Origin: a virus
IMG/VR virus record: IMGVR_UViG_3300037541_000360
Location: 1 to 26,699 of that record
DNA length: 26,699 bases
Reading direction: 5' to 3' (one strand)
Positions 2,826-12,100 of the stretch are shown piece by piece. Within the stretch, counting starts at the first letter, position 1, and each line of letters starts with the position of its first letter. The notes under the pieces were generated by a model. That model saw only the letters and a program-made list of their open reading frames with translations. It did not search any database and had not been told where the DNA came from. The translations under genes and the position numbers were made by a program.

Positions 2826-3338
2826 TCACATCCCAAACGGATCGACACCATCACCGCCAGCCGCTTCGACGTACACGGCGGGAACGTCCTTGCTGGCGTC
2901 GTGCCATTTCTTGATGTTGTTCCGCAACTCGCCGGCATTGTCTGGCTTGATCCCGATGGTTGCCACACATTCGCGGTCAATCAAATCGCTCGGACTTCTG
3001 GCTTGCGTGATGCCGCACGCCAAGCAGATGGCCTTAAGCTGTTGCTTTGCGATTTCTCGCACCTGTGCTGATGCGTGTTGCAAATTCAGGTTTTCGTAGT
3101 GCCGCTTCCCCTCGTATTCACTCGGCTCAGCCACGGTCAGCGTAAGTGCCAGCATGTTCGGACCGGCCTTCGATGCTCGCGTTTCCGCTTTGCTGATCCG
3201 CATTCGGTAGACGCCAGCCGGCAGCAGGTTCGACTTGACTTTCGACGTGTCGAACCCACCATCGCCGAACACTTCCGCGAACATCGCTTCGCCGCTGTCC
3301 GTCGTCTTTTCGTCTTCGATCCATTCGTTTTCGCTCAT
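2826..3338 (-). CDS. DUF669-type single-stranded DNA binding protein
   Basis: The 170 aa product fits the phage DUF669 family, which replaces SSB in many phages. Typical features are the LPAGVYRMRISKAE strand (residues about 40-53), LALTLTVAEPSEYEGKRHYE in the middle, and LKAICLACGI further on. The C-terminus ends in DGVDPFGM, resembling the acidic, Pro-Phe-ending SSB tail that recruits partners. It follows the Sak4-like ATPase by 11 bp, which is the usual pairing of annealing ATPase and SSB in phage recombination modules. The start ATG 3338 has TAGGAG 8 nt upstream. Confidence 0.8.
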   Translation of the reverse strand: MSENEWIEDEKTTDSGEAMFAEVFGDGGFDTSKVKSNLLPAGVYRMRISKAETRASKAGPNMLALTLTVAEPSEYEGKRHYENLNLQHASAQVREIAKQQLKAICLACGITQARSPSDLIDRECVATIGIKPDNAGELRNNIKKWHDASKDVPAVYVEAAGGDGVDPFGM

Positions 3339-4724: not shown

Positions 4725-4936
4725 TCGGCCACCTTTCGATAGTCGTTGATGTCGCGAAGGATGCCAGCCTCGAACATCCCTGTGCGAATATGAGTTGCCA
4801 TGCGTGCAACTGATACGCCATCTTCGGTCAGGCACTTGGCGTCGAGTGTTACTACATGCTCAAGCGCCGCTTTGCACATGGCAATCACGATGTCGCATTC
4901 TCGACGGATGGTTCGTTGTTCGGATTCGGTGATCAT
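4721..4936 (-). CDS. Small hypothetical protein, 71 aa
   Basis: No family is recognised. The product begins MITESEQRTIRRECDIVIAM. It looks helical, has two Cys residues in the first half (14 and 21) and a third at residue 35, and has no clear membrane span. It is coupled by ATGA overlaps at both ends, to 4933-5421 upstream and to the ribbon-helix-helix gene downstream. Confidence 0.65.
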   Translation of the reverse strand: MITESEQRTIRRECDIVIAMCKAALEHVVTLDAKCLTEDGVSVARMATHIRTGMFEAGILRDINDYRKVAE

Positions 4937-5421
4937 TCTCGGAACGCCTTAATTGTTTCGTCGAATGTAAGTTTTGCCGACTTCGCAGCGGCCACGGTTT
5001 CGATCTTTGCAACGATGCTCGGCCTTGCACACTCAGCCAAAATGCCAAGATGACTGGCCGCCGCGTCGTGTTTGGCTTTGGATGCGTTGTCGAGCTTGTC
5101 GTAGTCGGCACAGCCAAGCTTCTTCAGCGAGCGAACACTTGCCCGCCTGATGCGTTGAATGGCACCAGTTGCGACTTGGACAATCCCACTGTCGTTGAGC
5201 CGCGTTAGCGTGCCGTGTTCGCAGGCGACCACGATACGGCCCTCAGTCTGGACAATACGGCGGGCTGATGCCAACGCCGCGCGGAACTTTCCGCTGTTCT
5301 TGTCGAGCCGCAATTGATCGGCCAATAGATCGACAGACAGTGTGCCGCCAATTGCCATTTTCGCCAGGATGTCGACTAGCGTTTGCACGTCGTAGCCCCG
5401 CCTAAATTTGTCGTTCGCCAT
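4933..5421 (-). CDS. Hypothetical protein, 162 aa, first gene after the pentamer array
   Basis: No family is certain. The N-terminus (VQTLVDILAKMAIGGTLSVD, then LLADQL) looks like a helix-turn-helix or winged-helix start. A strand pair follows (EGRIVVACEHGTLTRLNDSG), and the rest is Arg/Lys- and Ala-rich and helical. A DNA-binding role is therefore plausible but inferred. ATG 5421 has GAGGAG 8 nt upstream. It is the first gene downstream of the cloverleaf/pentamer region in the direction of transcription, so it may be regulated by it or act on it. Confidence 0.7.
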   Translation of the reverse strand: MANDKFRRGYDVQTLVDILAKMAIGGTLSVDLLADQLRLDKNSGKFRAALASARRIVQTEGRIVVACEHGTLTRLNDSGIVQVATGAIQRIRRASVRSLKKLGCADYDKLDNASKAKHDAAASHLGILAECARPSIVAKIETVAAAKSAKLTFDETIKAFRE

Positions 5422-5448
5422 TGTGTTTGCTCCTCGTTAGTGTGTCGG

Positions 5449-5455
5449 AAAAAAA
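5449..5455 (-). other. T7 run at the downstream end of the pentamer array
   Basis: Seven consecutive T on the minus strand follow directly after the last pentamer and precede the ribosome binding site of the 162 aa gene. There is no strong hairpin immediately before the run, so it is not a typical intrinsic terminator by itself. Confidence 0.35.
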
Positions 5456-5544
5456 CGTCTCGTTTCGGGTCGATTCGCCTCAAATCGCGTCGGATCGGAT
5501 CGAGTCAGGTCACGTCGACTCGATTCGGATCGGTTCATCGCCAG

Positions 5545-5589
5545 AACCCGCCCGCAGTTGCGAACTGCCAGCCCGTTAGGCGGCGGGTT
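5545..5589. repeat. Cloverleaf element 1
   Basis: Outer stem AACCCGCC (5545-5552) pairs with GGCGGGTT (5582-5589). The inner hairpin is GCAGTT-GCG-AACTGC (5554-5568). The third hairpin is GCC-CGTTA-GGC (5571-5581). All pairs are Watson-Crick. Confidence 0.85.
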
Positions 5590-5660
5590 TCGTTTCGTTT
5601 CGTGTCGTGTCGGATCGATTCAAATCGGGTCGTTTCGAATCGCTTCAGCTCGGCACCAAT

Positions 5661-5703
5661 ACCCCACTGCCATTGCGAATGACTAGGTCGTTAGCCGTGG
5701 GGT
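5661..5703. repeat. Cloverleaf element 2
   Basis: Outer stem ACCCCAC (5661-5667) pairs with GTGGGGT (5697-5703), a compensated change from element 1. The inner hairpin is CATT-GCG-AATG with one mismatch further out. The third hairpin is GGT-CGTTA-GCC (5686-5696), closed by a G-T pair. Confidence 0.85.
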
Positions 5704-5768
5704 GCGTTTCGTGTCGTGTCGTGTCGTATCGCATCGAATCGCTTCGTGTCGGATCGCATCGTTGCCAG

Positions 5769-5814
5769 AACCCGCCTGTCATTGCGAATGACCAGCCCAT
5801 TACGGCAGCGGGTT
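5769..5814. repeat. Cloverleaf element 3
   Basis: Outer stem AACCCGC (5769-5775) pairs with GCGGGTT (5808-5814). The inner hairpin is GTCATT-GCG-AATGAC. The third hairpin is GCC-CATTAC-GGC (5795-5806). Confidence 0.85.
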
Positions 5815-5889
5815 ACGTTTCGTTTCGTATCGTTGCGTGTCGAATCGATTCAAATCGGTTCGCTTCGACTCGCTTCAGGTCGTCACCAG

Positions 5890-5933
5890 AACCCTGTCGC
5901 CATTGCGAATGGCAGGTCTTGCACCACAGGGTT
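5890..5933. repeat. Cloverleaf element 4
   Basis: Outer stem AACCCTGT (5890-5897) pairs with ACAGGGTT (5926-5933). The inner hairpin is GCCATT-GCG-AATGGC. The third hairpin is GGT-CTTGC-ACC (5915-5925). All three stems differ from element 1 and keep full pairing. Confidence 0.87.
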
Positions 5934-6048
5934 ACGTTTCGTGTCGGCTCGGCTCGAATCGTTTTGTTTCGACTCGCTTCAAGTCAGATCGAATCAATTC
6001 GGATCGACTCCACTCCACTCTGCTCAACTCGGGTCACGTCGATACCAG

Positions 6049-6093
6049 AACCCGCCCGCGATTGCGAATCGCCAGCCCGTTAGGCAGCGGGTT
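6049..6093. repeat. Cloverleaf element 5
   Basis: Outer stem AACCCGC (6049-6055) pairs with GCGGGTT (6087-6093). The inner hairpin is GCGATT-GCG-AATCGC. The third hairpin is GCC-CGTTA-GGC. The longest pentamer block, about 22 units, lies between elements 4 and 5. Confidence 0.85.
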
Positions 6094-6183
6094 ACGTTTC
6101 GCTTCACATCAAATCGTGTCACATCGTGTCGCATCGTCTAGGATCGTTTCAAATCGCCTCGACACGAATCGTCTCAGGTCGAC

Positions 6184-6747
6184 TTACTGTTCCGACCAAA
6201 CACACTTCTCAACGCGGAAGCGGCCATTCGTGCCGCCTTGGCTTGGCCGATATCGACCGACGCCAGCCAGCTTGCCGCATTCGTTTAGCACCCGCTCGAA
6301 AATGTCCTGCGGGATTTGATCGTCAAGGATGTAAACGGTCAGGTCGCCGCGCCACTTGGGCACCATCGGAAATGTCCGATCGACTCGGCTACCTCCACCG
6401 CGTTTACCTTGGGCGTGCATCGAGCCCGTCCAGTGCGGAACCGTGTCGCGGGTGTATTCCGTGACGATGCCATCAGTGATGAGAATGCCCGCCATGAACA
6501 GTTTGCCGTATTCGCTGTGCCCCTTGCCCTCGATGCGAATTCGCAACGTTCGCGCCATGTCTTTGATGGCGAACGAAAACTGCTCTGGCGGAATCACAAG
6601 CCGCCCGTCCTCTGTCCAGTGTGCCCGCTCTCGCCAGATGCGAGCTTCGAAGTCGGCATCAGCCTCTTTCGGCCGCTTCTTCTCTTGGATTTTCTTACCC
6701 TGACTGTAAGTCGAAATGCTCGATAGTGTCGCCACGCAAACTTTCAT
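6184..6747 (-). CDS. Hypothetical phage protein, 187 aa, with C-terminal GVGRYRP..GGTNGRF motif
   Basis: I do not recognise a named family with certainty. Residues about 10-50 are basic and charged (KKIQEKKRPKEADADFEAR). A middle section contains VIPPEQFSFAIKDMART. The C-terminus ends with GVGRYRPSQGGTNGRF and a final strand. A Gly-rich loop followed by GRF near the end recalls phage proteins that resemble ferredoxin-like/RAMP folds, but this is only a resemblance. I start at ATG 6747 because GAGGAG lies 7 nt upstream; the frame is open further up without a better site. It is the last gene before the pentamer array. Confidence 0.72.
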   Translation of the reverse strand: MKVCVATLSSISTYSQGKKIQEKKRPKEADADFEARIWRERAHWTEDGRLVIPPEQFSFAIKDMARTLRIRIEGKGHSEYGKLFMAGILITDGIVTEYTRDTVPHWTGSMHAQGKRGGGSRVDRTFPMVPKWRGDLTVYILDDQIPQDIFERVLNECGKLAGVGRYRPSQGGTNGRFRVEKCVWSEQ

Positions 6748-9813: not shown

Positions 9814-10031
9814 TGCCAAGCGGCGGAAAACGAGAAGGGGCCGGACGGAAGTCTGGCCCCTATGGCCCAAAAAAGATGGTTAGCTTGCGGTTAGCGGAAG
9901 ACGTCCGAAACTTCCTGGCGATTACCGCCAGTCAAGCGGACACAATCGAGACAGCGGTCCGCAAGTCGGCCGCGTTCAAGCGGTGGCGAGAGAAGCAATC
10001 CGAGAAAGGAAAGCTAATCAACATCCTGTGA
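9813..10031 (+). CDS. Small basic DNA-binding-like protein, 72 aa
   Basis: The product begins with GGKREGAGRKSGPYGPKKMV (residues 4-23), a start common to small phage and plasmid proteins. A ribbon-helix-helix-like stretch follows (VSLRLAEDVRNFLAITASQA) and then a basic helix (RKSAAFKRWREKQSEKGK). It is probably DNA-binding. It is coupled to the preceding gene and ends 18 bp inside the 3' end of the convergent glycosyltransferase gene, so late and switch transcripts collide here. Confidence 0.75.
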   Translation: MPSGGKREGAGRKSGPYGPKKMVSLRLAEDVRNFLAITASQADTIETAVRKSAAFKRWREKQSEKGKLINIL

Positions 10032-11375
10032 CAAGTAATCCAGCCAACTAGCGGCCATCCTGGCCGCCGATTGATCCAACGCCCATTGCCGGAGATTGTC
10101 CGGCAAGCCGCGACGGTGGGCGTCCAGGATTGCATCCGCAATATCTCGCGGCTCCGCTGGCTGCGGGATGATCGCCGCTCCAGCCGGCATCGTCTCGACC
10201 ACGCCAACGCGGGTAGACGCTAGCGGCTTACCGGCCGCGAGCGCCTCGACTGCCGCCAGGCAATAGCCCTCAGCGTCGCTAGCGACCACCGCGACGTCGC
10301 ACGCCCGCCACACATCGCCTACGTGCTCCACCGGCGGTAGGATCGTTACGCGATTGGATGGCGGCGGGACGTCAGCACCTCGACCGACTAGCACGAGCCG
10401 CCAGCCATCCGGCAGCAACTCGGCCGCCTTGGCAATCGAGCGTACTCGCTTCTCACCCGAGAACCGCCCGACATAGCCGACGATCCACCCAAGCGGCGAC
10501 AGCCCCAGGCGTTCACGGGCTTGCACCCGCGTTAGGTTCGATTGGCAACGCTCGATGTCGACACCGTTCTCGATGACTTTGGCGACTCGCGGGCATGGTA
10601 CAGCGGCCACATTGTGGACGGCCACCCAGCCCGTAACGTACGGATCGGCGGCCGACATCCACCAATCACCGCAGCCGTGCGACACGCCAACCGTAGGCGT
10701 GCCATTGCACGCCGCTAGCAGGTCCGGTGGCACGCTCCAGGCAATCACCCTGTCGACAGCCTGGGCCACCGTCGCAACCGCTAGTCGGGGCGACTGGACG
10801 CGTACGACGCCCGGTATTTCGGCACTGCTAACGATCGTTGCCCAACGCCCGAGGCGTTTGACCAACACGGGATCGGCACTAGCCGCCGTGCCAGTGTGGG
10901 CAACGATCGCTTCCGCCTTGCCGGATCGCGACCACTCCCGCGCCAAGCTGGCAATCCAGGATTCGACGCCGCCAACGAGAAGATTCGGCGTGACGATGCC
11001 GATACGCATTGTCGCGGGCTTGTCGATCGTCTCCGCCGTCCACTTGTCGATCGGGCAGTTCTCCGTTGCCATTCGGATCTTGTTCAGCAGCGGCCATTTG
11101 GAACTTGAAACGCGGCACCCGCACAGCTTGCACGTCCCGCGTTCCGCGTCGTAGCGTTCGCACGTCTGACAGATCGCGAATAGCCGGTCGGTGTCCGCGT
11201 CGCTACGCGTAGGACGTCCAGCACGTAGCCAACGAGCGACAGCGGCAGCGTATTGCGTGAGTTGCGCCCGTCGCTGTTCCTGCGGGGCTTGGCATTGCCG
11301 TTTGGTTTTCGGCTTGCGGGCTTGGTAGCCACAATAGATGCACCGCAAGCTGTCATCGAAGTCGCAAAGGCTCAT
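10014..11375 (-). CDS. Cys-cluster domain fused to a GT4-type glycosyltransferase, 453 aa
   Basis: GT4 enzymes transfer a sugar from a nucleotide-sugar to an acceptor. Residues 123-453 show MRIGIVTPNLLVGGVES (the N-terminal Rossmann start), GYVGRFSGEKR (300-310) and the GT4 E-x7-E motif in EGYCLAAVEALAAGKPLAST (369-388). Residues 1-120 are Cys-rich: C12, C15, C69, C72, C82, C85, C87 and C107, with ICQTCERYDAERGTCKLCGC as a zinc-binding pattern, followed by NKIRMATENCPIDKW, which recurs in phage proteins. ATG 11375 overlaps the upstream stop as ATGA. It is the last late gene, and may modify virion proteins or host surface glycans. Confidence 0.85.
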   Translation of the reverse strand: MSLCDFDDSLRCIYCGYQARKPKTKRQCQAPQEQRRAQLTQYAAAVARWLRAGRPTRSDADTDRLFAICQTCERYDAERGTCKLCGCRVSSSKWPLLNKIRMATENCPIDKWTAETIDKPATMRIGIVTPNLLVGGVESWIASLAREWSRSGKAEAIVAHTGTAASADPVLVKRLGRWATIVSSAEIPGVVRVQSPRLAVATVAQAVDRVIAWSVPPDLLAACNGTPTVGVSHGCGDWWMSAADPYVTGWVAVHNVAAVPCPRVAKVIENGVDIERCQSNLTRVQARERLGLSPLGWIVGYVGRFSGEKRVRSIAKAAELLPDGWRLVLVGRGADVPPPSNRVTILPPVEHVGDVWRACDVAVVASDAEGYCLAAVEALAAGKPLASTRVGVVETMPAGAAIIPQPAEPRDIADAILDAHRRGLPDNLRQWALDQSAARMAASWLDYLSQDVD

Positions 11376-12100
11376 GGGACGCCAGTAATCTTGATGGTTG
11401 CTGGTGGTTCGCAGATTGGCCGCCAATATGCATTGGGCAGGGCTTCGTATCGCTCGCCATGCGGGGGCGTGTCGGTGAGGTTGAAAATGTTGAACGTAGT
11501 AAACGGGTCCGGTCCAAACGGAGGAGACGTTGGGTTGTAAAACCACTGACGAAGATAGCTGGACCTTTCGTGATTCAGCACATAGTCTACCTGCTCATCG
11601 CAGATAAAATCAGTGAAGTTGACGAATCCTTCGTAGAGATGCTGATCTCCATAAATTCCGCGATAGGTGTCGACCCAATAATCCTGTTGAGTAAACGGAT
11701 TTTTTCGTTTTTCCTGACTGCTGGCATATTGTCGATTTAAGTTAATTGTCACAGTTATGCGATATTGTGTTTCCGTTACACACCGGACCTCCAGCGTAAC
11801 TGATTGATCATAAATGTAGTCGCCATAGGTCGCGTAGCCGATAACGCATTCAGGTTGCCACGATGGCTTTTTTCGCTCAAAATTCCAGCGGCAAATGATA
11901 TTGGAGATTCTGGAAAGCGTGAACACGCCGCCAGCCTCTTCGTCGCATGTTTGACACGCGCTATCCGCGAGCAGTATCTCGACGTCCCATTCCGTCGGGG
12001 CGTTGCCGTTGCAGCAGTCTTCGCAAAACTGCTCGCAGCAACATCGAGCCACGCTAAAACGATCTTTCACGGCGGGCACTCCGCACCGACAACCACCCAT
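11372..12100 (-). CDS. Cys-rich distal tail or virion protein, 242 aa
   Basis: The first 70 residues hold 11 Cys (for example GGCRCG, RCCCEQFCEDCC, ACQTC), which could form zinc sites or disulfides. Residues about 70-242 look beta-rich (YGDYIYDQSVTLEVRCV, QYRITVTINLN) with many aromatic residues and Pro near the end (NPTSPPFGPDPF). No family is recognised. Its position after the tape measure and two tail proteins suggests a tail-tip or receptor-contact component. It overlaps the upstream gene by 34 bp and the downstream gene by 4 bp (ATGA). Confidence 0.72.
   Translation of the reverse strand: MGGCRCGVPAVKDRFSVARCCCEQFCEDCCNGNAPTEWDVEILLADSACQTCDEEAGGVFTLSRISNIICRWNFERKKPSWQPECVIGYATYGDYIYDQSVTLEVRCVTETQYRITVTINLNRQYASSQEKRKNPFTQQDYWVDTYRGIYGDQHLYEGFVNFTDFICDEQVDYVLNHERSSYLRQWFYNPTSPPFGPDPFTTFNIFNLTDTPPHGERYEALPNAYWRPICEPPATIKITGVP

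What the first reader, a model, noticed from the sequence alone, without database searches (positions are those of the whole stretch)
5456..6183. Phase-locked pentamer array with five covarying cloverleaf elements, function unknown
Seen: about 95 pentamers of form C-R-N-N-T on the plus strand in constant 5-nt register. Five structured elements interrupt them, each with an outer stem (AACCCGC/GCGGGTT type), an inner hairpin with invariant ATT-GCG-AAT or GTT-GCG-AAC core, and a third hairpin. Compensated changes occur in all three stems: AACCCGCC/GGCGGGTT vs ACCCCAC/GTGGGGT vs AACCCTGT/ACAGGGTT outside; GCAGTT/AACTGC vs GTCATT/AATGAC vs GCGATT/AATCGC inside; GCC/GGC vs GGT/ACC in the third. Covariation means structure is selected, on DNA or on RNA. 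The 5-nt register suggests a repeating protein contact at half a helical turn or a polymer on single strands. I know no described family with this layout. It lies in an early operon with recombination genes.
Basis: seen in the sequence. Interest (0 to 1): 0.9.

Follow-up and report, generated by a model that had tools for sequence, protein, structure and literature searches.

The report
Phage-encoded VIPR guide-RNA array
The strange 5-letter repeat array is a set of six guide RNAs of a VIPR system, a CRISPR-like RNA-guided weapon that phages use against rival phages and that was first described in 2026; this copy uses a different constant triplet and hairpin spacers that the main text of that first description does not mention.

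Summary
Read on the minus strand (the sense of the operon), window 5456-6183 holds six tracts of 11-21 pentamers YGA+NN, separated by five three-stem elements whose stems covary. The gene just upstream, 6184-6747(-), is phrog_4652. Its AlphaFold model matches only Cas7/RAMP proteins among the 50 best PDB hits, and profile comparison joins it to the Vipr protein of the phage SUSP1 clade (99.8%, 1.7e-28). The gene just downstream, 4933-5421(-), is a remote homolog of the SUSP1 accessory protein Vap (phrog_5926; 93%, 3.5e-7). This two-gene-plus-array layout is a VIPR locus (preprint, April 2026, PMC13142463): constant triplets hold the RNA and hypervariable NN dinucleotides read DNA. In a sister phage the NN positions are randomised (32% identical) while four-fold sites of the flanking genes are 73% identical and the elements nearly unchanged. 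The kind of system is therefore known. Not in that paper's main text are the YGA triplet after a single leading GGY unit and the 48-50-nt three-way-junction elements between guides; they are not hammerheads by Rfam. I could not read its supplement. Target prediction was inconclusive. Host: probably Planctomycetota.

The parts
6184..6747 (-). vipr gene (phrog_4652; 187 aa from ATG at 6747), Cas7/RAMP-fold guide-RNA-binding protein
   Evidence: phrog_4652; AF2 model pLDDT 81; 50 best PDB fold hits all Cas7 family, best E 7e-7; profile match to SUSP1-clade Vipr 99.8%, 1.7e-28
6094..6183 (-). guide tract W5, 17 YGA+NN units, begins at the vipr stop codon
6045..6093 (-). three-stem element E5
   Evidence: covariance model hit
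5934..6044 (-). guide tract W4, 21 units, the most degenerate one
5886..5933 (-). three-stem element E4
5815..5885 (-). guide tract W3, 13 units
5765..5814 (-). three-stem element E3
5704..5764 (-). guide tract W2, 11 units
5656..5703 (-). three-stem element E2 (its minimum-energy fold differs from the others)
5590..5655 (-). guide tract W1, 12 units
5541..5589 (-). three-stem element E1
5454..5540 (-). guide tract W0, 16 units, followed by a T run and no element
4933..5421 (-). vap gene (162 aa), predicted winged-helix DNA-binding accessory protein
   Evidence: profile match to phrog_5926 93%, 3.5e-7; AF2 model pLDDT 83.5; weak PDB fold hits, best E 0.026, mostly winged-helix regulators

Best explanation
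This is a VIPR locus carried by a phage, probably of a planctomycete. Transcription from right to left gives an RNA with six guide tracts between vipr and vap. Copies of the Vipr (Cas7-like) protein would assemble on each tract, one per pentamer, gripping the constant YGA triplet and exposing the variable NN dinucleotide. The exposed dinucleotides would together read a double-stranded DNA target at one-base skips (NNxNNx), repressing genes of rival phages, satellites or prophages, helped by the DNA-binding-like Vap protein. The three-stem elements would be the structured 3' tails and/or cutting points that separate the six guides. Shown here: protein fold and homology, gene order, code-like organisation, hypervariability of NN, conservation and covariation of the elements. 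Inferred from the SUSP1 work in the preprint: RNA expression, RNP assembly, the one-base-skip rule, DNA targeting and repression. Inferred by me: that YGA plays the part of GGY, one protein per pentamer, and the role of the elements.
For: Vipr: fold and profile homology to the SUSP1 clade, with SUSP1 itself in the same two-gene order. Vap. Arrays beside phrog_4652 genes in phages of unrelated hosts. NN 52/162 identical against 120/164 four-fold sites between sister phages, Fisher 1e-13. Second case: orphan tracts in L368/L423 have flanks 92% and 89% identical but NN only 5/26. TA depleted in NN, 5 seen and 22 expected, P 1.5e-5, as expected for codon positions 1-2. First unit after an element is GGY+NN in 10 of 11 copies. 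VIPR biology from PMC13142463.
Against: The triplet is YGA, not GGY. No convincing target was found. The last tract W0 has no element after it. Tract W4 has 21 units, more than the 9-16 quoted for SUSP1-type guides. No RNA data exist for this phage. Homology of 4933-5421 to Vap is remote. TA depletion could also come from avoiding UA in RNA.
Confidence: 0.92

Rival explanations
1. A double-stranded DNA site: an iteron, origin or partition (centromere-like) array bound every half turn by a DNA-binding protein, with hairpins extruded in DNA.
For: 5-bp phasing, palindromic elements, and a neighbouring gene with a winged-helix-like predicted fold.
Against: Arrays accompany a Cas7/RAMP-fold RNA-binding-type gene in many phages. 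Array strand is fixed relative to that gene where checked (window, L057, L387, L400, L427). Iterons would not have randomised NN with TA depletion.
Confidence: 0.03
2. A degenerate microsatellite: slippage of a TCGTT-like unit followed by drift, with no function.
For: Low-complexity look; unit number differs between sister phages.
Against: Drift would erode all five positions alike; here constant positions are kept at 64-78% and NN falls to chance, beyond four-fold sites. NN are close to uniform, not slippage-like. In 294 Planctomycetota genomes the pattern is no commoner than its reversed control (5 against 11 genomes).
Confidence: 0.01
3. A VIPR-derived decoy or scaffold RNA: Vipr coats the RNA but the RNA guides nothing; it may for instance sequester a rival's Vipr or a host type III CRISPR protein.
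For: Cas7-like protein and repeat RNA encoded by a phage; no target identified.
Against: A decoy needs no hypervariable NN and no TA depletion. SUSP1 and P. fulva relatives are shown to be guides (PMC13142463).
Confidence: 0.03

Closest known systems
VIPR system of Escherichia phage SUSP1 (preprint PMC13142463; locus L515)
   Same: Vipr and Vap homologs in the same order; several tandem guide tracts; constant triplet alternating with hypervariable NN; structured constant element next to each tract
   Different: Triplet YGA with one leading GGY unit instead of GGT/GGC throughout; the whole array lies between vipr and vap instead of flanking the pair; 48-50-nt three-way-junction elements instead of the SUSP1 pseudoknotted tail; six tracts in one gap
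Hammerhead-interspersed VIPR arrays (mentioned in PMC13142463)
   Same: Guides separated by small structured RNAs in one array
   Different: The elements here match no Rfam family, hammerheads included
Class 1 CRISPR-Cas type VII / III (Cas7, Csm3)
   Same: RAMP backbone fold; polymer on a guide RNA; repeat-like elements between guides (inferred)
   Different: No other cas genes noticed near by, no contiguous spacers, pentamer instead of 6-nt organisation
TRAP (trp RNA-binding attenuation protein) binding sites
   Same: Constant triplets with 2-nt spacers, 5-nt period on RNA (from memory, a lead only)
   Different: Unrelated ring protein; the 2 nt between triplets carry no message

Membership tests
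VIPR | Vipr: small RAMP homolog with one RRM core, glycine-rich loop and thumb | tested here: met
   187 aa; fold hits all Cas7 family; profile match to SUSP1-clade Vipr 1.7e-28; GRYRPSQGGTNGRF glycine-rich stretch near the C-terminus
VIPR | vap gene next to vipr | tested here: met
   4933-5421 is a remote homolog of phrog_5926, the family of SUSP1 gene ALH47068.1's clade (HHalign 93%, 3.5e-7); identity is remote
VIPR | vrRNA of 9-16 units, GGY (or a related consensus) alternating with NN | tested here: met
   Six tracts of 11, 12, 13, 16, 17 and 21 units YGA+NN; counted as a related consensus, since GGY itself is met only in the first unit
VIPR | NN positions hypervariable between relatives | tested here: met
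   52/162 against 120/164 four-fold sites, Fisher 1e-13
VIPR | Conserved structured 3' tail on each guide | tested here: inconclusive
   Conserved covarying element after five of six tracts; W0 has none; no RNA ends are known
VIPR | Targets DNA with one-base skip | tested here: inconclusive
   One lead for W0 in L466-L469, about one chance family expected; W1 none; W3 as chance
VIPR | vrRNA expressed and bound by Vipr; transcriptional repression | not testable with these tools
   Needs RNA and protein experiments
Hammerhead ribozyme (as separator) | Match to a hammerhead covariance model | tested here: not met
   cmscan of 5400-6250 at E up to 5 gives no hammerhead
CRISPR-Cas (class 1) | CRISPR array with near-identical repeats and unique contiguous spacers, plus other cas genes | tested here: not met
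   Elements differ from each other, tracts are pentamer-periodic; no cas genes noticed among the ORFs scanned; no PADLOC match for the two genes

The most novel reading that the evidence does not exclude
An undescribed VIPR type in phages of Planctomycetota: the guide code is GGY+NN once, then YGA+NN, showing that the constant triplet is set by the Vipr lineage and can change, and the guides of one long transcript are separated by a new small three-way-junction RNA that acts as tail and processing site.
Probability: 0.35. Interest if true: 0.65.

Novelty: new variant of a known kind. Interest (0 to 1): 0.55.

Why it matters
It identifies unexplained pentamer arrays in phage genomes as guide RNAs, gives a ready search rule (phrog_4652 plus 5-nt-periodic intergenic sequence), and shows that the constant triplet differs among Vipr lineages: GGT in wV8, GGC in LittleE, GCA in the Vibrio and Listonella phages, CGA/YGA here. 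That makes the match between protein and triplet directly testable. The sister-phage comparison also shows guides being rewritten faster than silent sites while the separators stay fixed, which asks how phages acquire new guides without any known adaptation genes.

Tried and rejected
Rfam on window and related loci: nothing. tRNA scan: nothing. GenBank phages and plasmids by DNA similarity: nothing useful. Coding-frame reading of the array: plus-strand ORFs exist but only as a by-product of the 15-nt period; rejected. Hammerhead: rejected. Target search in 3.8 Mb of held loci at skips 0-3: apart from the arrays themselves, no better than shuffled controls. Covariance model of the element finds only the window and L057 convincingly among held loci (one weak hit in L426) and nothing in 294 Planctomycetota genomes (with strict filters and no positive control). 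DNA-site, microsatellite and decoy readings are under rivals.

Full report
What was seen. The array is real. In 5456-6183 there are 94 CRNNT matches, 88 of them in two registers, and the self-match at lag 5 is 0.485 against about 0.25 in the neighbouring genes. The genes on both sides, 6184-6747 and 4933-5421, lie on the minus strand, so the RNA sense is the reverse complement: units YGA+NN.

A sister phage. IMG/VR contig 3300034072_000755 (L057) holds the same region with six elements. Five elements correspond one to one and differ by none to a few bases; one is extra. The flanking stretches align at 81-88% DNA identity. Position by position along the pentamers, the constant positions are 74, 78 and 64% identical and the two NN positions 37 and 27%. 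Pooled, NN is 52/162 identical against 120/164 at four-fold sites of the two flanking genes (Fisher 1e-13). Aligning whole units does no better than shuffled order for five of six tract pairs; W3 with its partner is the exception. So the triplet frame is kept while the dinucleotides are rewritten faster than silent sites.

The neighbour protein. A scan of viral contigs for (TCGNN)x7 brought further phages with diverse-NN arrays. All-against-all comparison showed homologs of window gene 6184-6747 directly beside several of them. All are phrog_4652, function unknown. L382/L361 and the contig of L423/L400 also carry it; short or partial contigs L352, L374 and L368 do not show it. GenBank phages with phrog_4652 (123-134 records by tblastn) have 5-nt-periodic gaps beside the gene with other triplets: GGC in Mycobacterium phage LittleE, GGT in wV8, GCA in phiHSIC and Vibrio phage 1.266. 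Trine showed no array in the short gap inspected. The AlphaFold model of the window protein (pLDDT 81) matches only Cas7-family proteins among its 50 best PDB hits, best type VII Cas7, E 7e-7. A second gene, phrog_5926, follows in most of these phages; window gene 4933-5421 is its remote homolog (HHalign 93%, 3.5e-7).

What it is. A preprint of April-June 2026 (PMC13142463, found, read) describes VIPR: a phage RAMP protein (Vipr), an accessory protein (Vap), and vrRNAs of 9-16 GGY/NN units with a structured 3' tail. The NN letters pair with double-stranded DNA at one-base skips, and the system represses rival phages and satellites. Its model phage SUSP1 carries the same two genes, and the window clade aligns with the SUSP1-clade Vipr at 99.8%, E 1.7e-28. 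The window is therefore a VIPR locus.

Anatomy in RNA sense. vipr stop - W5 (17 units) - E5 - W4 (21) - E4 - W3 (13) - E3 - W2 (11) - E2 - W1 (12) - E1 - W0 (16) - vap. After an element the first unit is GGY+NN in 10 of 11 copies over both phages; before each element stands a near-constant CGAAACGN. In 146 YGA units, taken from the tracts of both phages, the first base is C 115 / T 31 and NN are near uniform. TA is depleted among NN: 5 seen, 22 expected over six loci, P 1.5e-5, as expected if NN are codon positions 1-2 of coding targets; avoidance of UA in RNA is the alternative. Each element has an outer stem of 7-8 pairs, a short hairpin of 2-3 pairs and a hairpin around the invariant TTCGCAA; covariation is. 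Single-sequence folding is only mildly better than shuffles, and element 2 folds differently by minimum energy.

Targets. Under the one-base-skip rule, 3.8 Mb of held loci gave nothing beyond shuffled controls other than the arrays themselves. Nine dinucleotides of W1 have no exact match in IMG/VR. Nine of W0 have five; four are one family in which a tenth dinucleotide also matches and the skip falls on wobble positions of a 76-aa ORF. By my estimate roughly one independent chance hit is expected, so this is a lead, not proof. Eight of W3 gave 26 hits, in line with chance.

Host. Portal homologs, most at 37-44% identity, occur in 30 of 294 Planctomycetota genomes, while the terminase has only distant matches among GenBank phages. 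A planctomycete host is likely, but other phyla were not compared. Planctomycetota genomes also hold vipr-like genes (8 of 294); some have short tracts that look GGY-like.

Novelty. The kind is known. In the main text of the preprint the code is GGY 'or a related consensus' and the named array forms are type II arrays, staggered arrays, hammerhead-interspersed arrays and single guides. I therefore file it as a new variant, with that reservation.

Noticed in passing
L459 (Mycobacterium phage LittleE) about 5205-5252 and 5350-5396; L458 (Gordonia phage MakoManhole) about 2980-3025 and 3098-3142: The guide tracts of these actinophage VIPR loci are separated by elements with a tRNA T-arm-like hairpin (GGTTCGANTCC type) inside an outer stem, the same general layout as the window's elements. 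They could be tRNA-like processing sites (RNase P or Z); not tested.
   Followed up: partly
L423 7146-7235 and L368 4787-4856: Single guide tract between tail chaperone and tape measure genes, antisense to them; in L423's contig the vipr gene lies some 27 kb away (L400). Between the two contigs the flanks are 92% and 89% identical but NN only 5/26, a second natural case of guide replacement.
   Followed up: partly
L464 (phiHSIC), L459 (LittleE), L465 (Ecliptus), L462 (Medea1): The vipr-vap-array module sits inside head or tail gene clusters, on the opposite strand in phiHSIC and LittleE, so it behaves like a mobile cargo cassette.
   Followed up: no
L426 7700-8600: Array of several tracts in an NGA+NN code with short constant separators of the type AACCGCACAAAG, next to another phrog_4652 gene.
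   Followed up: no
L382 10044-10300 (same in L361): Four short TCGNN tracts separated by TACTG-type spacers right after a phrog_4652 gene; a further separator type.
   Followed up: no
window 10014-11546 (-): A glycosyltransferase gene (Glyco_trans_1_4) lies among the structural genes of the phage.
   Followed up: no
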